Shown piece after piece: positions 21,095 to 45,009 of a stretch of 64,000 nucleotides of DNA (the first letter of the stretch is position 1; each line of letters opens with the position of its first letter). The notes beneath the pieces were generated by a model. The model saw only the letters and a list, made by a program, of their open reading frames with translations. It made no database searches and had not been told where the DNA came from. A program made the position numbers and the translations under genes. Where the stretch lies: NCBI GenBank assembly GCA_025403435.1, contig CM046333.1, forward strand, positions 36,663,521-36,727,520, read 5' to 3'. The DNA is from Artocarpus heterophyllus. Its lineage: Eukaryota; Streptophyta; Magnoliopsida; Rosales; Moraceae.

Positions 21095-21099
21095 CTTAA
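21095..21099. repeat. Target-site duplication, left copy (CTTAA)
   Basis: CTTAA immediately before the TGTGACACCC start of the left LTR. The identical pentamer follows the right LTR at 30055-30059. Confidence 0.9.
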
Positions 21100-23464
21100 T
21101 GTGACACCCGTTATTCTTCTAACGGGTATTGAGGTAATTAAATTAATTTTTAATGTATAAAAAAAAAATTGCTTCATTTAAATTTATTTTATAATATTTA
21201 TTTTTATCTATTTTTAAATTTTCTAAAATTCTCCTATATTTATTTAGTATGATTACTAAAAAGCCTTAGAACTTCTAATAAATCTCAAAAATGTCATATT
21301 GGCATTATGTGTGTTAAAGTCTTTAGATGAGACATAAGGATATATTTTCCAACTACTCTTGACCCTCATTTTCTTTATTTCCTCCGTGACATGCTTCAAC
21401 ATGTCTCCTCTATAATTGTTTCTATCACTTCTTTTCAAAGACTTCATCTTTTCTTCCTTTTTCTTCCACGGTTCCCACACTCTTCTTCTCATTTCTTTGC
21501 TGAAGCAAAATACTTAGAGAACTTCTTCAAGGCAGCCATAAAAATCAGCCACCATCACCTCCATTTGAGCAAGAATTTCAGTCATACCGAAGTAAAGGAA
21601 CCTGTTTTGAAGCCATTTCAAGCTTCCAACTAACCATAATCCGAGGTTAGAATCTTATGAACAAATTTAGTCTTTCATTTATAAATTTTCTTTTATACTA
21701 AAGGATTATTCAAATTTGCGTTCTTAAACCTAAGTATATGTTTGTTGCTATTTTGGAGCATATGTATGAAGTCTAAGTGTATATGCCCTAGACAGAAAAT
21801 TTATATTGTTAAACTTTGTAATACCCCTATGGGCAGTGGTTATTTCTTGAAATTCTAAGATTAAATTAAAATGAATTTTATGAATTGGTTTGCATATTTG
21901 AAAAGTAGCATCCTAGGCTTTCTAACGAGCTATCATAAACCTAAATCGGAGTTGTATTTTATTTTCTAAGAATTATTCAATTTTTGTATTGGAAACTAGT
22001 AAATCTGCCAGTTTGTTATGGTATACCAGCTGCTAACCTGAACCAAGAACCCATCTTTGCTCACCACCTAATTCTTTAATGTCTTGCAACCTTTCCAATA
22101 TTATCCTAAGTGATTGATGAATCTTATTAGGGACTAAAACATATAGATTACTTGTTCACATTTTATATTGTGTTAAGACAAAAATTGTTTACTGTGGTAT
22201 TCAAAAGAGATTTATATAAAAGCTTTAATGGCATACTAGTAAGATAGGTTTACACATGATTTATTTATGAATGTAGTTGTATGTTGTGCTTTAGTTTTAA
22301 TTGTCCTTATGCACGCCTTAGGATCAAGGGAGTATGGAGCTAACGTTAATTGATTCCAGGATTAAGAGACTGTTGATAAGCTTGAAAGGTAGGGATTCTA
22401 TTACTCATCTTTTGTGAGGTTTTTATAGAATTAAAATTGATTGTTTTGCCGCAATATATATATATATCTATGTTGAACTGATATTATATGTGTATCACAT
22501 ATGAAACTGTGACATGGACTCGTCTTGTATTGTACGGCGAGGAACATAATGAATTGACACATGTTATAAATTGAGAAGCATGGTTAGGAAAATTAACTCT
22601 ATTAATAATGATTTAATATAGAGAAATTGTGAGACATGAAAAGGGCGACGGTTACGTCCTTGGGCATGAATACCCTAAAAGGTAAAATAGGGGGAAGGTG
22701 ATGACGCTTCCTTGGGTTGAAAGTCCCAGAACACACTGTACAGGAATTGATTTGGTGAGGACTCGGGGCTTGATGTCCCCTCACCGGAACACCCTTGGAA
22801 TGTTTATAGGGTGATCAAGTGCGCCCATTTGGGTTTCGATGAGTTGAGTGATACTCAATTTAACATGGATACCTAGGAACAATGATGATTGGTAATATTT
22901 GTATAAATGTGTAATTATGACACTTGGTAATGATTAACTACGGTATCCATAAGATGTGATCATAATAAACCTCATAATCTGGAATATGATGTGACTTACT
23001 AACCATGCAGATTTTAATGTGGTAATGATAAAAACCTGAAGGTGAGTAATGGCTTTCTCTACTGAGCATAGTGTTGCTCATACCCTTATATTTTTATCTT
23101 TTCAGGACTCACTAAGTGTGAGGTGGCTACGAGAAATATAGTTGAGGAAGTGATGTAGCTATATTACATTGGGACTGCTTCAATTGTTGAGAATGTTCTT
23201 CATGATAATGTAAGCATCAATTGTTACTTTCTGTGACTGTATTACAATGTGTTGAGGGTTAAAATGATGATGACAACAGTTTATATTATTAAATTTAAGG
23301 TGCTACATTAAAACTGTGGTTTATTTATCGTTTATATTTTTATTTTTGAGTTGAGAGTTTTCATTTAAGTCCCGGGCAAATTTTAATCTTTAAGGTTTTA
23401 CTTTTATTATTTATTTTTATTTTATCTCATTAAAAACTGTTAACCCCCATATAGGGGCGTTACA
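21100..23464 (+). repeat. Left LTR of the retrotransposon, 2365 bp
   Basis: TGTGACACCC...GGGGCGTTACA. It contains a pyrimidine-rich stretch near 21420-21490 and an AT dinucleotide run near 22456. Small ORFs inside recur identically in the right LTR and show no domain resemblance; they are not considered genes. Confidence 0.92.
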
Positions 23465-23471
23465 GAATTTT

Positions 23472-23483
23472 TGGTATCAGAGC
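23472..23483 (+). promoter_or_regulatory. Primer-binding site, initiator Met tRNA
   Basis: TGGTATCAGAGC, complementary to the 3' end of plant initiator tRNA-Met, placed 7 bases after the left LTR. This is where minus-strand DNA synthesis would begin. Confidence 0.85.
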
Positions 23484-24921
23484 CTAGGTTCGGTTAACCT
23501 AGGGAGTGTAGCATCACTTTAAAAAAATATATTTTTGAGATGGTTTTGAAGCTGAATTTTCATTGTCATCATCAAAATGAACCTTCACATTGATTTATAC
23601 AGTCTAGAAGGATGTAACATGGAAAGGCCATAGAATGAAAATACTAATAGTTTATGAGTACAATAATTATATAGAAGGAAAGTATTAATAGTTATAAGGG
23701 AATGATAATTATATGGAATGAGTTTATAAGTAGAATGCTTATGAGAGATTCGTATAATATTTGGATCTATAAGCATATCTAATTCGTATAAACGATGAGA
23801 AATTCGTATAGATAAGAGGATTTAAAAGCCTTTTGTCTCGTGAAAAACAATGAGAAATATAAGGCTTGATTTATTGATTTTAAAGTTTGACATAGATATG
23901 CCAAATTTTTCGTAATTGATTCAAACCTAAGTAATGATTATGTGTGGATTCGATGGAGCACATAAGTGTCAATAACTTTTCTTGAAAGTTCTATTTATTT
24001 GAGGAATATGATATAAGTTGGGAATCATGGTATTGAATCTTGAGAGAGATAAATGTTAGACTTTTGGTCTGTTGAGACTGTGTAAAGTCTAGAATGCATG
24101 AATCTCAAAATTGGAATATTTTGTTACGTACATTGTATTTAAGTGTATCAGTGAATCTTTCGGTTACCTAAGGTTTTGTTATATGAGGAAATTATATATT
24201 GTATGAGTAGAATTGTGGGGATTGTAGATGTTCTTAAGTAGTAACATCAAGTGTCTTTGTTCATTGATATGGTCTACGTTGAAAGACGTAAATCGTATTG
24301 ATTTCAAGGTTAGTCGCATTCTAAACCCTTGGTAGTAATGATGATGAATCCATTGATAGATGTTGAGTATTATCAATAACATATGGGTGTATGCATTGTT
24401 CAATAAGGTTTTGATTAAAACAAAATTATTTGAGTTGCTGGATCATTCAGGAAGATCGTTGTTGTCGTTAAATTAGATTTGTTGTTTATAGTTAACTTTA
24501 TCTATAGTGGACTTTGAATTGGGTTTAAGATTTATACAAATTGGTTTTCAATTTTATGTTTGTTATTTAACTCGTTCTAAATGTGTTAAGGCCCGAAACA
24601 ACCTGACCATTTTCAACTAAGAACATTTGGGCCTAGTTCAAATCTTAAATCAGTTTGATTCACACTGTCTCTCCCACGTGGTCTCTATACGTGTCATATA
24701 CAGTGGTTTAATTATTGTTTACATATACGTTTACTGTGCGTATGACCTTATTTCTCCGAGTTCACTTTTTCTCTCTTAATTTGTTATTTTTTCTCTAAAT
24801 CGCAAATCCTCTTCTTTTTCATTAAAAATTCTTCTTTTCCTCTAAAAGAAGAAGGAATTCTAGGATTCTGCAATTTACTATCTTAATTTTTCCTTTCTAT
24901 TTACTCTTCTTTCATCTCATC
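23484..24921. other. Retrotransposon 5' interior, untranslated
   Basis: No ORF of note and no gag remnant. The last 150 bases (about 24770-24921) are pyrimidine-rich with CTTCTTTTTC and TTCTCTCTT runs, like a plant 5' leader, directly before the first cargo ORF. This could be an inherited leader or internal promoter region of the captured sequence. Confidence 0.4.
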
Positions 24922-25335
24922 ATGGACCCAAAGTACCAACACCTGAGAAAGTATTTCCCATCACTCTCCCAAAAGATTCTTAGAAAGAAATACAAGGCTA
25001 GAATTACTCGGTTGTGGATTCTTATGCGTTTTGGTATCCCTTGTGATGTGAGAATGTTAATAGAGGGGAAAATCCGTCCGAGTGACTTTAGTCAAGATGT
25101 CGGTTTACCAGGAACAGGTACCAGTCGTAGTGCAATGAAAAGAAGAGCTCGTGCCATCGTGGTCACTTGTAACAAATGTGGAAGACAAAATTGTAACGGT
25201 AAATGTACTTCACCTGGTTATATGTCTACGAATAGAGAGGATAAAATAAGGTTTTGTAGGGATGGACTTTCAAAGGAGAACTTGGATAGCATCCATCCTC
25301 CTATCCACGGTCACCCTAGTGGATATGTTCAATGA
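24922..25335 (+). CDS. Cargo ORF 1: basic Cys-cluster protein (137 aa), NABP-like
   Basis: First cargo ORF, ATG in context TCATCATGG. An amphipathic/hydrophobic stretch at about residues 28-48 (ITRLWILMRFGIPCDV) is followed by an Arg/Lys patch at 68-78 (SRSAMKRRARA), then four cysteines at 83, 86, 91 and 95 (CNKCGRQNCNGKC), then SPGYMSTN and an FCRDGL segment. The order hydrophobic helix, basic patch, CxxC...C cluster, PGxS/N matches the small nucleic-acid-binding cysteine-rich proteins of carlaviruses and vitiviruses (Betaflexiviridae), although the second half of the Cys cluster is more tightly spaced here. It is not a gag CCHC knuckle. A role in nucleic-acid binding is inferred. After the TGA the same frame stays open for 35 codons to a TAA at about 25441. 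It could also be a lineage-specific plant protein with convergent features. Confidence 0.6.
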   Translation: MDPKYQHLRKYFPSLSQKILRKKYKARITRLWILMRFGIPCDVRMLIEGKIRPSDFSQDVGLPGTGTSRSAMKRRARAIVVTCNKCGRQNCNGKCTSPGYMSTNREDKIRFCRDGLSKENLDSIHPPIHGHPSGYVQ

Positions 25336-26086
25336 GCTATTTTTAAACTCTGGCCTAAATTTTATACAGAAAGACAACGCCTCAGGAATATGGTATTTTT
25401 AGATCCTGTTTGTCAAGCCATAAGAAAACTGGATGGGGAATAAGTCATCGCTCTATAAAGGTTATTTAGTCTTTACTTATTTGAAGCAGTTTTAGCTTAT
25501 GTTCAACAGTTTGTGTTTTTCTTTTACTCAGAATATTTGCTTTTGTGTTTGAAATAATTGTGATTATTAGATTGATACAGTAAGTGTTAATATCTTATTT
25601 AATTTATGATTTTCTTAAATATATATATAATAAAATATATTATCTTATCAAACACGTTACATACGGTACAGTAATATGTTTGAATTTTGAAAAGCTTATC
25701 CAGATATTTCAAGATTTGTGTCTCAAATTTCAAAAGTTCTACAGTATTTGTCGTTTATATTAAATTTCTAGACTTGGTGTATATTTGTCAAAAAGTCTAC
25801 AGTTGTGTCAAGAGGGTCTTTTGTCGAATTGTTCTCAATTGTCAAAAGTTATACAATTAGTGTCTAATCTTTTTCAAAAAGTGAATCAGATTTTCTATAA
25901 ACTATCAATCACCTTATCTTACTTTCTTATCCGCACAAGATTTTGTTTAAATCTTTGGATTACCTTTTCATTACCTACTCGTCTATCTCTTTAGCCCTTT
26001 TTGTATATTTCTCATCTTTAAAATCTCATGTAGAACCCGAAGTCTAAGTGGAGCAGACATTAAGCAACCACTTCTATAAACCAAAT
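25336..26086. other. Spacer between the cargo ORFs
   Basis: The first 105 bases extend the frame of ORF 1 beyond its stop. The rest is AT-rich with a TATA-like run near 25620-25640. The LOG frame opens at 26048 after a stop but has no ATG until 26087. No poly-A tract marks the end of ORF 1. Confidence 0.4.
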
Positions 26087-26737
26087 ATGTCTACCTCCCA
26101 GTCCACGAAGAAAATAAAGAATGTCTGTGTCTTTTGTGGTTCCAGCCTTGGAAAAGATAAAGCTTATTTAGAAGCTGCAAATCACTTAGGGCAAGTCCTA
26201 GCACGCAAGAAGATTAACATAATCTATGGGGGTGGTAGTATAAAAATGATGGTAAATATGGCACTAGCAGCTAGGTCTAGTGACGCTACTGATGTAAGAA
26301 TTTGGCCTCATATTCCAGTTGAAGGAAACCTTTGTAAGGAAGCCATAGGTAAGGGAGAAGGAGTCAGGAGTATCCCTAAAAATTTTAAAGACATAATCTA
26401 TAATTCTGATGCTTTTATAGCATTACCTGGTGGTCTAGGTACTCTTGAGGAAATATTTATAGTTGCTTGTGGGCAATTGTTGGGCTTTTATTCCAAACCT
26501 TTGGGACTGCTGAACGTAAAGGGTTTTTATGACGGTCTTTTGAAATTTCTAGATTACGCTGTGGAAGAAAACATCACTACAGAATCGGAGAGACAAATCT
26601 TTGTCACTGCTTCAACAGCTGAGGAATTGATAGATAAAATGCAAATCATACATCCAGAATCCGACACTGCAACATCCAAGCTTGAATGGGAAAGAGAAAG
26701 CCGGGAGCGGCCAATTGATTTGAATCTCCATCTGTAA
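26087..26737 (+). CDS. Cargo ORF 2: intronless LOG-like phosphoribohydrolase (216 aa)
   Basis: Homologue of plant LONELY GUY, which cleaves cytokinin riboside 5'-monophosphates to free active cytokinins. First ATG of the open frame chosen; the length of 216 matches plant LOGs. Visible: VCVFCGSS at 13-20, IIYGGGS at 45-51, SDAFIALPGGLGTLEE at 107-122 (the PGGxGTxxE loop with its Glu), KPLGLLNVKGFYDGLL at 137-152, and SKLEWE near 197-202. Plant LOG genes are split by several introns; this one has none, so it came through an RNA step. The segment holding the catalytic Arg in LOGs (a QRKAEM-type motif) is replaced by SIPKNFKDII (95-104), with Asn where the Arg would align, and GGGSVGLMG-type sequence reads GGGSIKMMV. 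The canonical activity is therefore doubtful. The C terminus RPIDLNLHL contains an EAR-like LxLxL motif. The frame is intact, so it is either young or under constraint. Confidence 0.88.
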   Translation: MSTSQSTKKIKNVCVFCGSSLGKDKAYLEAANHLGQVLARKKINIIYGGGSIKMMVNMALAARSSDATDVRIWPHIPVEGNLCKEAIGKGEGVRSIPKNFKDIIYNSDAFIALPGGLGTLEEIFIVACGQLLGFYSKPLGLLNVKGFYDGLLKFLDYAVEENITTESERQIFVTASTAEELIDKMQIIHPESDTATSKLEWERESRERPIDLNLHL

Positions 26738-27690
26738 TCTTTTTGTTTTATCTTTGGCATGTAGGCATGTGTGTCCGTATTTCGTGTGTTACGAATAACC
26801 GTTTGCCTTGTATTCTGTGTTTCTTGTGGTACGTTGTTGTTCAATCTTTTAGATTCATTGAGCCTAATGCCGGGATGGCTGGATACGGAGTACTTGATGC
26901 TCTCGAAACGCATCCTTCTTAAGGTCCGATCTTTTGTTTATCGATGTTTTTGTATTCTATAAGCATGCATGATATGGATAGCTGGTATACGGAGTGCCTT
27001 GTACTCTCGAAACGTATCCGTATTATGTTTGTAATGTGTAATATTCTGTTAATATTATGTGGAAGTACCAGAGTCAATTATGGGGATATTCCATATGTAA
27101 TATGAATATATTATTTGGGTTGAATGTTTGTGTCATGATGATAGCTGTTTAATGAAAAATATGTCGGGTTTGTCTACAACCAGAGATTCCGTTTAATATC
27201 TCTATGAATAAGTTTAATGTATGGTTTTGAATATAAGTGTTTGTGATATATGTTTTATGATTATGTTTTAGTTTATTAGTTGAGGTATGAAATCAAATAT
27301 ATTTGACTTTTCCTTACTCAAAAAGGAAAAGGAACCTAAAGATGAAGTATATAAAATTTCTCTAGCAATCTCCTTAAATGTGATTGTAAATCACAGTCCA
27401 TGGACAATGAAGGACTGGAATCATGATATGGTCAATATGTATGCCTGATCAGATTCTTAGACTATTATACGGTGTTATAAGTTGAAACTTGTCAGAAATA
27501 CTCTCATTGAGGGATTTAGGAGTAAGATTTATTATGCAAGTAAATAAGTGGAGATACGATAACTTAACTTTGGAAGATAAACAACATTAACGGTTTAGAC
27601 TCGGAATTGGAATCATAATGGAATCAAAATTTTTACTAGTATTGCTGAATTGAAATTTCGAGGACGAAATTTCTTTAAGGGGGGTAGAGC
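26738..27690. other. Retrotransposon 3' interior with imperfect repeat
   Basis: No ORF of note. A 38-bp segment at 26877-26914 (GGATACGGAGTACTTGATGC...CTCTCGAAACGCATCC) recurs imperfectly at 26984-27020 (GGTATACGGAGTGCC...CTCTCGAAACGTATCC). The segment ends in the polypurine tract. Confidence 0.5.
27677..27690 (+). promoter_or_regulatory. Polypurine tract
   Basis: AAGGGGGGTAGAGC directly before the right LTR, preceded by GAAATTTCGAGGACGAAAT, a sequence shared by many Tekay/Del-type plant gypsy elements. It would prime plus-strand synthesis. Confidence 0.8.
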
Positions 27691-30054
27691 TGTGACACCC
27701 GTTATTCTTCTAACGGGTATTGAGGTAATTAAATTAATTTTTAATGTATAAAAAAAAATTGCTTCATTTAAATTTATTTTATAATATTTATTTTTATCTA
27801 TTTTTAAATTTTCTAAAATTCTCCTATATTTATTTAGTATGATTACTAAAAAGCCTTAGAACTTCTAATAAATCTCAAAAATGTCATATTGGCATTATGT
27901 GTGTTAAAGTCTTTAGATGAGACATAAGGATATATTTTCCAACTACTCTTGACCCTCATTTTCTTTATTTCCTCCGTGACATGCTTCAACATGTCTCCTC
28001 TATAATTGTTTCTATCACTTCTTTTCAAAGACTTCATCTTTTCTTCCTTTTTCTTCCACGGTTCCCACACTCTTCTTCTCATTTCTTTGCTGAAGCAAAA
28101 TACTTAGAGAACTTCTTCAAGGCAGCCATAAAAATCAGCCACCATCACCTCCATTTGAGCAAGAATTTCAGTCATACCGAAGTAAAGGAACCTGTTTTGA
28201 AGCCATTTCAAGCTTCCAACTAACCATAATCCGAGGTTAGAATCTTATGAACAAATTTAGTCTTTCATTTATAAATTTTCTTTTATACTAAAGGATTATT
28301 CAAATTTGCGTTCTTAAACCTAAGTATATGTTTGTTGCTATTTTGGAGCATATGTATGAAGTCTAAGTGTATATGCCCTAGACAGAAAATTTATATTGTT
28401 AAACTTTGTAATACCCCTATGGGCAGTGGTTATTTCTTGAAATTCTAAGATTAAATTAAAATGAATTTTATGAATTGGTTTGCATATTTGAAAAGTAGCA
28501 TCCTAGGCTTTCTAACGAGCTATCATAAACCTAAATCGGAGTTGTATTTTATTTTCTAAGAATTATTCAATTTTTGTATTGGAAACTAGTAAATCTGCCA
28601 GTTTGTTATGGTATACCAGCTGCTAACCTGAACCAAGAACCCATCTTTGCTCACCACCTAATTCTTTAATGTCTTGCAACCTTTCCAATATTATCCTAAG
28701 TGATTGATGAATCTTATTAGGGACTAAAACATATAGATTACTTGTTCACATTTTATATTGTGTTAAGACAAAAATTGTTTACTGTGGTATTCAAAAGAGA
28801 TTTATATAAAAGCTTTAATGGCATACTAGTAAGATAGGTTTACACATGATTTATTTATGAATGTAGTTGTATGTTGTGCTTTAGTTTTAATTGTCCTTAT
28901 GCACGCCTTAGGATCAAGGGAGTATGGAGCTAACGTTAATTGATTCCAGGATTAAGAGACTGTTGATAAGCTTGAAAGGTAGGGATTCTATTACTCATCT
29001 TTTGTGAGGTTTTTATAGAATTAAAATTGATTGTTTTGCCGCAATATATATATATATCTATGTTGAACTGATATTATATGTGTATCACATATGAAACTGT
29101 GACATGGACTCGTCTTGTATTGTACGGCGAGGAACATAATGAATTGACACATGTTATAAATTGAGAAGCATGGTTAGGAAAATTAACTCTATTAATAATG
29201 ATTTAATATAGAGAAATTGTGAGACATGAAAAGGGCGACGGTTACGTCCTTGGGCATGAATACCCTAAAAGGTAAAATAGGGGGAAGGTGATGACGCTTC
29301 CTTGGGTTGAAAGTCCCAGAACACACTGTACAGGAATTGATTTGGTGAGGACTCGGGGCTTGATGTCCCCTCACCGGAACACCCTTGGAATGTTTATAGG
29401 GTGATCAAGTGCGCCCATTTGGGTTTCGATGAGTTGAGTGATACTCAATTTAACATGGATACCTAGGAACAATGATGATTGGTAATATTTGTATAAATGT
29501 GTAATTATGACACTTGGTAATGATTAACTACGGTATCCATAAGATGTGATCATAATAAACCTCATAATCTGGAATATGATGTGACTTACTAACCATGCAG
29601 ATTTTAATGTGGTAATGATAAAAACCTGAAGGTGAGTAATGGCTTTCTCTACTGAGCATAGTGTTGCTCATACCCTTATATTTTTATCTTTTCAGGACTC
29701 ACTAAGTGTGAGGTGGCTACGAGAAATATAGTTGAGGAAGTGATGTAGCTATATTACATTGGGACTGCTTCAATTGTTGAGAATGTTCTTCATGATAATG
29801 TAAGCATCAATTGTTACTTTCTGTGACTGTATTACAATGTGTTGAGGGTTAAAATGATGATGACAACAGTTTATATTATTAAATTTAAGGTGCTACATTA
29901 AAACTGTGGTTTATTTATCGTTTATATTTTTATTTTTGAGTTGAGAGTTTTCATTTAAGTCCCGGGCAAATTTTAATCTTTAAGGTTTTACTTTTATTAT
30001 TTATTTTTATTTTATCTCATTAAAAACTGTTAACCCCCATATAGGGGCGTTACA
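27691..30054 (+). repeat. Right LTR of the retrotransposon, 2364 bp
   Basis: Same as the left LTR in every stretch compared, except for a poly-A run of 9 instead of 10 near 27750. The element's polyadenylation signals would be supplied here. Confidence 0.92.
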
Positions 30055-30059
30055 CTTAA
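30055..30059. repeat. Target-site duplication, right copy (CTTAA)
   Basis: CTTAA immediately after GTTACA of the right LTR; identical to 21095-21099. Confidence 0.9.
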
Positions 30060-30344: not shown

Positions 30345-30382
30345 GGTGGTGGTGGTGGTGGTGGTGGTGGTGGTGGTGGTGG
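30345..30382. repeat. (GGT)n microsatellite
   Basis: About 12 GGT units preceded by a T-tract of about 18. Confidence 0.9.
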
Positions 30383-33830: not shown

Positions 33831-34350
33831 TTGTTTGTCAAATGTGTTTAATTGCAACAGTTAAACAAATATAAAAGTAAACTATCAAAAATAAAAATTT
33901 AAAGAGCAATTTGGCACAAAACAAATAGATTCTAAAAATCATTCAAATTCTTGATTAATAAATGCATAGGATCTACAAGTACAATCTATAGATTTTCATT
34001 AGACTACATACATTAAAACGACGTCATATATAAATAAGACTAAAGTATTGAGTCAAATATTACTAAACAATGTTTAACCTTGTGCATTTCGTACAAAATG
34101 ATTTGAGTAGCGTTTTGTTTTTTGCTGAATTATGCAAATGGCATTTAGATGAGCCGTGTTAGAACAAAACTCTGTGAGTTGACTCACCTGACTCGCCTGA
34201 AGGCTTGGCATAATTGTAATTTAAGACGATTTCAGTGTCATTTAGGTTCAATCGGCACATAAATGCCCAAGGGCCGTCTATTTTGAATCGCGGCCGTTGC
34301 TTCTTTCTTCCCTGATCATTTTTGCCCGGGAACGAACCAGACCATTCCAA

Positions 34351-37300
34351 ATGTCCAAAATACCCTTCTCATCTCCCACAATGCCAGCCCTTCTCTTCCT
34401 CTTCATCTTCTTTGCCTTACCCCTGGTGGTAATTTCACAGTCCTCGGATGCCGAACGATCAATTCTTCTGAGCCTCAGAGAACAATGGGGGAATCCGCCG
34501 TCGCTGGCGTCGTGGAACTCGTCGTCCTCGCCCTGCGATTGGCCGGAGATTCAATGCTCTGCCAATGGCACCGTCACCGGACTTTCACTCCGCGAAAAGG
34601 ACATAACGGAGAAGATTCCGGCGACCATCTGCGACCTCAAGAACCTCACTTTGCTCCACCTGGCACTGAATTACATCCCCGGAGACTTTCCGAAAGTTCT
34701 CTACAATTGTTCGGAGCTCCAGTTCCTTGACCTTTCGCAGAACTGCTTTTCCGGCCAAATTCCCGACGATATCAACCGGCTTTCGGGCCTCCGGCTTTTA
34801 GACCTCAGCGGGAACAACTTCTCGGGAAATATTCCGGCGTCCATCGGCCGGTTTCCGGAGCTGAGAGAGCTGAATCTTCACATGAATTTGTTCAACGGAA
34901 CGTTTCCGAGAGAGATTGGAAACTTATCTAATCTCGAGCTGCTAAGACTGGCCTACAACGGCCTGTTCGTCCCCGCTTCGATACCGTCAGAGTTTGGTAA
35001 GTTGAAGAATTTGAAGGAGTTGTGGATGACAGGGACGAATTTGATGGGAAATATACCGGAAAGTTTCGCCGATCTTCAGAGCCTCGAGAAATTGGACCTT
35101 TCGATGAACAAACTGGTTGGTTCGATTCCTAAAGGACTGCTGATGTTAAAGAATCTACAATATTTACTTCTGTTCCATAATAGATTGTCCGGTGAGATTC
35201 CGAGACCCGTTCAAGCACTGAATATCAGCGAAATTGATATTTCAATGAACAATTTGACTGGTTCGATCCCGGATGATTTCGGAAAGTTGAGCAATTTGAC
35301 GGTTCTAAATCTGTTTTCAAATCAATTGAGTGGCGTGATTCCAGTGAGGATAGGACTAATTCCGACTCTGAAGCTCTTCCGCGTCTTCAGCAACGAATTG
35401 AACGGAACTTTGCCACCGGAGATCGGCCTGCATTCAAAGCTCGAAGCCTTTGAGGTCTCTAACAATCAACTAACGGGTCAATTGCCAGAAAATCTATGCG
35501 AAAATGGTGCTCTACGAGGATTGATTGCGTTCTCGAACCACCTTAGCGGAGAATTGCCTAAGGGGCTAAAAAATTGCAAATCCTTGACTACTATTGAGCT
35601 TTACCAGAACAATTTCTCCGGCGAGGTACCACTGGGGATGTGGACAGCACTGAACTTGTCGACTTTGATGATCAGCGACAACTCCCTTTCGGGACAGCTT
35701 CCGAGCAAGTTGCCGTGGAACATGTCGAGGCTCGAAATTAGTAACAACAGATTCTCCGGCGAAATCCCCACAGAAGCGTCCACTTGGGAAAGTTTGATCG
35801 TTTTCAAGGCTAGTAACAACCGGTTTTCTGGTAAGATCCCAGTCGAAATCACGAGCCTTTCTCGCTTAACGACTTTGTTGCTCGACGGGAACCAGTTTTC
35901 AGGCGAACTTCCGTCACCAATCATCTCATGGAAGTCACTTGACACGCTTAATCTCTCAAGAAATGAACTCTCAGGCCAGATTCCACCATCTATTTCTTCT
36001 CTACCGAACCTTCTTTACTTGGGCTTATCAGAAAACCATTTATCAGGCGAGATTCCTCCTCAGCTTGGCAGTTTGAGGCTAAATTCTCTCAATTTATCTT
36101 CCAACAATCTCTCCGGGAAAGTCCCATATGAATTTGACAATCTTGCGTACGAAAACAGTTTCTTGAAGAATCCAAACCTGTGTTCCAACAACCCAAATAT
36201 GAACCTTCTTCGAACTTGTGGCACAGAATATTTCCGTGACTCCAAAAAGCTCTCTTCCAAAGTCCTCGCCTTGATTCTGATACTCGCCGTAATCGTTGTG
36301 CTGGTGACTGTTTCGTCGACTTTTTACATGGTCAAACAGCTTACAAGGAAAAGGCATGATCAGAAGTTAGCCTCATGGAAGCTTACCTCATTCCACAGAT
36401 TGGATTTCACAGAATATAACGTTTTGAGGAACTTAACGGATAACAATCTAATTGGTGATGGAGGGTCAGGGAAAGTGTACAGGATCGGCACAAACAGTCT
36501 CGGTGATTTTGTGGCTGTGAAGAAGATTTGGAACGACAGGAAATGGGATGAGCATTTGGAGAAGGAATTCCTAGCCGAAGTTCACATCCTGGGGACGATT
36601 AGGCACTCCAACATTGTCAAGTTGCTGTGCTGCATTTCAAGTGAGAACTCGAAGCTTCTCGTCTACGAGTACATGGAGAATCAGAGTCTAGATATTTGGC
36701 TTCATGGAAAGAGGAGTAGGAGGAAGTTGTTGAGCCATGGAATTGGCTTGATTCATCATGTTGCTTTGGATTGGCCTAGGAGGCTGCAGATTGCAATTGG
36801 GGCTGCACAAGGGTTATGTTACATGCACCACGACTGCTTGCCGCCCATCATTCACCGCGACGTCAAGTCAAGCAATATATTATTGGATTCTGAATTCAAG
36901 GCAAGGATAGCAGATTTCGGTCTAGCCAAGATATTGGCCAAGCATGGAGACCACCACAGCGTTTCTGCCATTGCAGGCTCCTTCGGTTACATAGCCCCAG
37001 GTAAAGAACTTTGATTTTTTTGAAATACAATTTTCTAAAACTCATTTATCATAGTCTAAAATCGATTACATTTGGCAGAATATGCTTACACGGCGAAGGT
37101 TAATGAGAAGATTGATGTTTATAGCTTTGGGGTTGTACTACTTGAGCTAGCAACTGGAAAGGAGCCATATTGTGGTGAAGAGGAGATGAGCTTGGCAGAA
37201 TGGGCATGGCAGCATTACGGCGACGAAAAGCCTATTAGTGATGCCCTTGATGTGGAGATCAAGAAACCTAGTTATTTGGATGAGATGACCACTGTGTTTA

Positions 37301-40069: not shown

Positions 40070-45009
<4,940 letters not shown>

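What the first reader, a model, noticed from the sequence alone, without database searches (positions are those of the whole stretch)
21100..30054. LTR retrotransposon whose coding capacity is replaced by a nucleic-acid-binding-like protein and a LOG homologue
Seen: paired LTRs, CTTAA target duplications, PBS, PPT, no gag or pol in any frame, and two intact sense ORFs (24922-25335 and 26087-26737). Known: plant LTR elements can capture host genes, and LOG controls active cytokinin in meristems. Inference: the pair could be selected cargo, one protein handling the element's RNA/DNA (a gag substitute) and the other altering cytokinin status of cells that feed the germline. A gag/pol-less retroelement with two intact non-retroviral ORFs is the strongest candidate here for an undescribed system.
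Basis: partly seen in the sequence, partly recalled or inferred. Interest (0 to 1): 0.92.

Follow-up and report, generated by a model that had tools for sequence, protein, structure and literature searches.

The report
Jumping gene carrying two selected accessory genes
A plant retrotransposon that has lost its own copying machinery exists in many recently moved copies and carries two protein-coding genes that appear to be kept by natural selection: a relative of a plant-virus protein class known to block RNA silencing, and an altered relative of a cytokinin-activating enzyme.

Summary
The element is real: LTRs 21100-23464 and 27691-30054 differ by one gap, with a CTTAA duplication, PBS, PPT and no gag/pol by Pfam. 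It is not a one-off: 150 places in the 985-Mb genome (the window's included; capped list) encode an identical LOG protein, and 13 of 16 sampled copies with both ends found have perfect, all different 5-bp target duplications. ORF1 belongs to a plant-genome family matching flexivirus nucleic-acid-binding (cysteine-rich, silencing-suppressor) proteins; here it is cut short by a stop absent from 20 of 20 copies chosen by LOG. ORF2 is LOG-like but has lost the Arg-Lys pair and GLMG seen in the five solved LOG chains aligned, and ends in LxLxL. Both genes look protein-constrained (dN/dS 0.16 and 0.27 against a diverged relative in the same genome). The same ordered pair follows gag and protease frames in one copy of another family here, and occurs in single gene models of Citrus and Orobanche. 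LOG domains in Citrus and Populus Ty3/gypsy elements are in print; the viral-type partner and the pair I did not find in nine paper searches. The anti-silencing role is inferred.

The parts
21095..21099 (.). 5-bp target site duplication CTTAA, left
21100..23464 (+). 5' LTR (2365 bases)
   Evidence: identical to the 3' LTR but for one 1-base gap
23472..23483 (+). primer binding site TGGTATCAGAGC (tRNA-iMet type, recalled)
24922..25335 (+). ORF1, flexivirus NABP/cysteine-rich-protein-like, 137 aa, ended by a stop absent from the 32 copies not chosen by ORF1 DNA
25336..25443 (+). still open C-terminal part of the ORF1 frame with its terminal stop, conserved in relatives, cut off here by the earlier stop
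26087..26737 (+). ORF2, LOG-like protein, 216 aa, Arg-Lys pair and GLMG lost, C-terminal LxLxL
27674..27684 (+). polypurine tract region TTTAAGGGGGG
27691..30054 (+). 3' LTR (2364 bases)
30055..30059 (.). 5-bp target site duplication CTTAA, right

Best explanation
A recently active, high-copy, non-autonomous LTR retrotransposon family that must be copied in trans by a gag-pol element (partner not found; inferred). It carries an old two-gene accessory module, NABP then LOG, that is constrained as protein (shown). Most likely (inferred) NABP, a homologue of flexivirus cysteine-rich proteins, binds RNA/DNA and weakens host silencing of the element. The LOG-like protein no longer looks like a standard cytokinin-activating enzyme; most likely it works by binding, for example as a partner of host LOG subunits or through its LxLxL tail (an EAR-type co-repressor motif, recalled), changing the state of the cells in which the element moves.
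For: Mobility: one search scored 150 places (of 6120 candidates, window included), all 150 with the identical LOG and no stop; of 20 other copies fetched as 9455-base stretches, 16 have both ends found, 13 of these with perfect and mutually different 5-bp duplications; LTR pairs of 15 copies differ by 0-2 substitutions. Constraint: ORF1 in 20 LOG-chosen copies S18/N18, 0.37 of the neutral ratio, p 0.003; LOG in 38 gapless copies S16/N21, 0.53, p 0.04; against the diverged copy L068, NG86 dN/dS 0.16 (95% 0.09-0.28) for NABP and 0.27 (0.18-0.41) for LOG; 0.27-0.53 between the window LOG and 12 other LOG copies. Module: same order in L068, in L082 behind gag and protease frames, and in gene models P0147, P0164, P0186, P0216 (Orobanche) and P0166, P0172, P0191 (Citrus). 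Viral homology: 17 of 24 family members match Carla_C4 and 15 of 24 Viral_NABP at E<=0.001, best 1.2e-08; the first eight Foldseek viral hits are flexivirus NABP, silencing-suppressor or 15-kDa proteins (virus families recalled). Flexivirus CRPs act as silencing suppressors, and one also as a transcription factor causing hyperplasia (PMC12172455, passages).
Against: No expression, silencing or binding data. The window ORF1 itself reaches only Viral_NABP E 0.006 and Carla_C4 0.069, below both cut-offs; its model is weak (pLDDT 65), no viral Foldseek hit reaches E 0.001 and TM-scores of those eight are 0.17-0.45. Copies with truncated ORF1 still spread, so full NABP may not be needed in cis. LOG frames are broken in 2 of 40 copies, 3 of 12 and at least 39 of 150 diverged copies (counted by hand). 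No partner with these LTRs was found. The per-copy tests rest on few changes and a neutral spectrum from the same copies; the diverged LOGs were mostly picked for having no stop.
Confidence: 0.5

Rival explanations
1. Passive passenger model: the two ORFs are captured host or virus sequences that hitch-hike in a successful non-autonomous element; openness reflects recent amplification from few master copies.
For: Window-family copies are nearly identical, so recent openness alone proves little; truncated ORF1 copies amplify; 3 of 12 LOGs are broken and at least 39 of 150; one close pair (L068, L084) gives dN/dS 0.96.
Against: dN/dS 0.16 and 0.27 against L068 at dS about 0.8-1.0; 0.22-0.30 between window or L068-type LOGs and the L082 type (L082, L089), at dS 1.3-1.5; pair order kept in Citrus and Orobanche gene models.
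Confidence: 0.15
2. Hormone model: the LOG releases active cytokinin and favours proliferating, germline-feeding cells.
For: Fold and PGGLGTLEE kept; LOG ORF constrained; relatives L068, L085 and L089 keep GLMG and the Arg.
Against: Window lineage lost Arg-Lys and GLMG; the Arg-Lys pair is not kept in 103 of 119 LOG hits examined, the best-listed of 5291. That these residues are needed for catalysis is recalled, not tested.
Confidence: 0.2
3. Packaging model: NABP is a nucleocapsid-like chaperone standing in for gag.
For: Zinc-knuckle-like C-x2-C-x4-C-x3-C after a basic stretch.
Against: Sits beside gag in L082; homology is to flexivirus NABPs.
Confidence: 0.1

Closest known systems
YgdH/LOG domain in Citrus and Populus Ty3/gypsy elements (PMC9289625, citing Steinbauerova et al. 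2011, which is not held)
   Same: LOG-type domain carried as extra domain in plant LTR retrotransposons
   Different: Those regions were found by their RT domain; the section read names no viral NABP partner; here gag/pol are absent and the LOG site is altered
AlkB (m6A demethylase) in Phalaenopsis Ty3/gypsy elements (PMC9289625)
   Same: Accessory gene of a type also found in flexiviruses, kept by an LTR element family
   Different: Different gene, in elements with a polyprotein
Flexivirus NABP/CRP silencing suppressors (Pfam PF05515, PF01623)
   Same: Basic stretch followed by a Cys-rich motif and conserved flank
   Different: Encoded in plant chromosomes within mobile elements, not in an RNA virus; function untested
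LARD / TR-GAG non-autonomous LTR elements (recalled)
   Same: LTRs, PBS, PPT, no pol found; L082 shows gag and protease frames
   Different: These are usually described without selected protein cargo (recalled)
LOG cytokinin riboside 5'-monophosphate phosphoribohydrolases
   Same: Sequence homology and PGGxGTxxE motif
   Different: Arg-Lys and GLMG lost in the window lineage; C-terminal LxLxL present

Membership tests
Non-autonomous LTR retrotransposon | Paired LTRs with target duplication, PBS and PPT | tested here: met
Non-autonomous LTR retrotransposon | No gag/pol domains | tested here: met
   26 of 26 internal frames of 45 aa or more in the window copy
Non-autonomous LTR retrotransposon | Mobilised in trans by a partner | not tested
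Flexivirus NABP (PF05515/PF01623) | Match above Pfam gathering score | tested here: inconclusive
   window ORF1 below both cut-offs; relatives P0125, P0132, P0147, P0164 and P0216 above both, P0172 and P0186 above one, P0166, P0191 and P0232 above neither
Flexivirus NABP (PF05515/PF01623) | Silencing suppression / nucleic-acid binding | not testable with these tools
   needs experiment
LOG phosphoribohydrolase | PGGxGTxxE motif | tested here: met
LOG phosphoribohydrolase | Arg-Lys pair and GLMG motif, present in the five solved chains aligned (14 matched) | tested here: not met
   window reads NF and KMMV there
LOG phosphoribohydrolase | Cytokinin-nucleotide hydrolysis | not testable with these tools
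   needs experiment

The most novel reading that the evidence does not exclude
Eudicot LTR elements share a portable two-gene module, a virus-type silencing suppressor plus a LOG turned into a non-enzymatic regulator, that lets even gag-less and pol-less elements overcome host silencing and spread; the module stands in two element families of different architecture within one genome.
Probability: 0.3. Interest if true: 0.9.

Novelty: new variant of a known kind. Interest (0 to 1): 0.72.

Why it matters
Non-autonomous LTR elements are usually seen as protein-less parasites (recalled). A family with selected cargo, one gene related to plant RNA-virus silencing suppressors, would link transposon success, virus gene exchange and host silencing, and is directly testable. 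It also warns that plant genes annotated as LOG may belong to this LOG-like group (for instance Populus LOGL10 entries P0010, P0019, P0042) and may not make cytokinin.

Tried and rejected
Viral contig scans with ORF1 and with a Populus LOG found no relative. An AlphaFold model of ORF1 from 4 sequences was poor; with 24 it reached pLDDT 65 and gave no PDB match at E<=0.001. Matching contig lengths between parts of the LOG and NABP tables gave three coincidences, of which only the 8723-base contig (P0132, P0053) is informative: 905 bases are too short for both genes and the third is a 22-Mb chromosome. L068 as a clear LTR element: not shown; no PBS in the 8 kb upstream, and a 73-81% flanking repeat lacks ends that I could recognise. 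YN00 rates failed, NG86 used. Copy number of L068 was asked but did not complete. One-off capture and gag substitute were rejected for the reasons given. Two papers looked up were not held. Paper searches behind the not-in-print statement; one search asked about the LOG active site and gave nothing of use.
Full report
The element. LTRs of 2365 and 2364 bases bound a 4226-base interior. They differ by one 1-base gap, and CTTAA stands on both sides. A tRNA-iMet type PBS follows the 5' LTR and a purine tract precedes the 3' LTR (read directly; tRNA type recalled, as is the resemblance of these ends to Tekay/Del chromoviruses). All 26 stop-to-stop frames of 45 aa or more in the interior were given to Pfam; none matches a retroviral domain. 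Shorter frames were not scanned.

It is a mobile family. The window lies in a 985-Mb genome. The ORF1 DNA query scored 40 full-length matches, the window included, out of 700 candidates. The LOG protein scored 150 out of 6120, all 150 at 100% identity with no stop, the window included, all on contigs C1-C10, so the true number is probably higher. Twenty of the 39 other ORF1 matches were fetched as 9455-base stretches; two of these (L013, L021) hold a 100-base run of N. With ends located by short end motifs, 16 of 20 have both ends; 13 of 16 have perfect 5-bp target duplications, all different. Of the three others, L014 and L028 differ at one base and L010 at two. For 15 copies the LTR pair was aligned: 0-2 substitutions, 8 of 15 with none. 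There are two LTR length classes, about 2365 and about 1975 bases. So these are independent, recent insertions; ages would need a rate and are not claimed.

ORF1. It matches Viral_NABP at 0.006 and Carla_C4 at 0.069, below the curated cut-offs. A profile of four relatives reached 175 proteins at E<=1, of which 120 were listed; 116 of 120 (counted by hand) carry a precomputed Carla_C4 and many also Viral_NABP. Named sources are plants (Hibiscus, Orobanche, Xanthoceras, Acer, Citrus, Striga), apart from one 98-aa fragment filed under Clostridioides difficile. Of 24 members scanned, 17 match Carla_C4 and 15 Viral_NABP at E<=0.001; the window member does not. In Foldseek's viral library the first eight hits are flexivirus NABP, silencing-suppressor or 15-kDa proteins (best E 0.0047, none at 0.001), but TM-scores are low (0.17-0.45), so this is mainly sequence signal. 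Relatives have a conserved C-terminal part that the window copy loses to a stop. That stop is in 20 of 20 copies picked by likeness to the window ORF1, 0 of 20 picked by LOG and 0 of 12 picked by NABP score; the 150 score-ranked places each list a single TAA, as expected for the normal end of the frame. So the stop is a subfamily trait, not the family state.

ORF2. The nearest solved relatives are LOG-type proteins. The window keeps PGGLGTLEE, but the Arg-Lys pair shared by the five solved chains aligned (of 14 matched) is Asn-Phe and GLMG is KMMV. Among 119 other LOG hits (the best listed of 5291), 84 lack the Arg-Lys pair and have a C-terminal LxLxL, 14 have the pair and no LxLxL, 2 have both, 19 neither (several of the 19 are short at the C-terminus). 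In this genome other LOG copies show the steps: L085-L088 keep SLGLM and an Arg; L090-L092 have KMM and RNF; the window has KMM and KNF.

Selection. With a neutral spectrum from non-coding interior columns of 20-21 copies, LOG showed S12/N9 in a first set of 19 gapless copies (ratio 0.30, p 0.006) and S16/N21 in 38 gapless copies (0.53, p 0.04). The larger set gives the weaker result and should be preferred. ORF1 in 20 copies not chosen by ORF1 gave S18/N18 (0.37, p 0.003). LOG frames are broken in 2 of 40 and 3 of 12 copies. Against the diverged copy L068 (77% and 74% nucleotide identity, both frames open in the part read; its whole LOG match lists no stop), NG86 dN/dS is 0.16 for NABP (dS 1.03, 172 codons) and 0.27 for LOG (dS 0.82, 197 codons); bootstrap 95% ranges 0.09-0.28 and 0.18-0.41. 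Between the window LOG and 12 other LOG copies it is 0.27-0.53. These 12 are not a random set: of the 10 fetched, eight had no stop listed and two (L083, L084) had one and were compared over their longest frame. One pair of close copies (L068, L084) gives 0.96 on very few changes. One search printed only part of the pairs, and pairs with dS above 2 are saturated.

The module. A LOG query from another source finds several LOG groups here (150 of 5840 candidates scored; identities 46-57%; about 111 of 150 list no stop, counted by hand; frameshifts are not shown there). In L082, from one such group, a Retrotrans_gag frame (E 2e-22) and a weak aspartic-protease frame (0.0026, below the cut-off) are followed by NABP and LOG. 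Five frames of L082 were scanned and none matches RT or integrase; the other frames, including those in the 1.2 kb between protease and NABP listed, were not scanned. The gag-protease frame is interrupted in this copy. The NABP of L082 matches Viral_NABP only at 0.0072, but is 58% identical to the window NABP. LTRs of L082 were not defined, and its likeness to Athila gag is recalled. In Orobanche (P0147, P0164, P0186, P0216) and Citrus (P0166, P0172, P0191) single gene models hold NABP and LOG in the same order; in P0166 both Pfam matches stay below the cut-offs and in P0191 the NABP one is not listed, but the parts are plain by eye and in the precomputed labels; another Citrus model, P0232, gave no Pfam match at 0.01. 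One 8723-base contig length is shared by P0132 (NABP) and P0053 (LOG). So the pair is old and not specific to this element. In the NABP tree the window groups with Hibiscus at moderate support (89/95), a weak hint of Malvales.

Mechanism. Shown: mobility, absence of gag/pol in the window copy, pair conservation, protein-level constraint, altered LOG residues. Inferred: trans-mobilisation; that NABP suppresses silencing as flexivirus CRPs do (PMC12172455, passages read: CRPs as RNA silencing suppressors, and Chrysanthemum virus B p12 as a weak suppressor and a transcription factor inducing hyperplasia); that the LOG acts without, or with changed, catalysis; that LxLxL is an EAR-type co-repressor motif (recalled). 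The cytokinin-gain model is not excluded for the other LOG groups, which keep more of the site.

Prior work. PMC9289625 (section 12 and passages read) reports the YgdH domain, the one found in LONELY GUY proteins, in Ty3/gypsy consensus sequences of two Citrus species and, without their filter, Populus trichocarpa, in line with Steinbauerova et al. 2011 (not held). PMC6317226 and PMC11963269 (passages) describe extra ORFs and non-autonomous elements in general. I found no report of the NABP-type gene in LTR elements or of the pair in the searches; most subscription papers are not held, so this is weak evidence of absence.

Noticed in passing
G000:C9:16537152-16564376 (outside the window): Five LOG copies on one strand spaced 6.62-6.66 kb, about the size of one LTR plus interior, which suggests a tandem array of the element.
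   Followed up: no
25445-26080: The spacer between ORF1 and LOG shows 30 changes per kb among 21 copies, against 74-79 in the other non-coding interior pieces; it could be functional or an effect of choosing copies by ORF1.
   Followed up: no
L009-L028: Two LTR length classes, about 2365 and about 1975 bases, among otherwise alike copies.
   Followed up: no
P0010, P0019, P0042 (protein hits): Populus genes annotated as LOGL10 belong to the LOG-like group without the Lys and with C-terminal LxLxL; they may be element genes and may not be ordinary LOG enzymes.
   Followed up: partly
P0235 (protein hit): A fragment filed under Clostridioides difficile on a 293-base contig is a NABP-family piece, probably plant contamination.
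   Followed up: no
L080:4603-5127: A Retrotrans_gag-looking frame in opposite orientation about 4.6 kb upstream of the diverged NABP-LOG copy L068; named by eye, not scanned.
   Followed up: no
34246-37014: Open 922-aa frame that reads like a leucine-rich-repeat receptor kinase of the HSL type (name recalled).
   Followed up: no
40259-41350 (-): Open 363-aa frame that reads like the C-terminal part of a nuclear poly(A) polymerase (name recalled).
   Followed up: no
about 30345-30381: GGT microsatellite about 290 bases outside the right target duplication.
   Followed up: no
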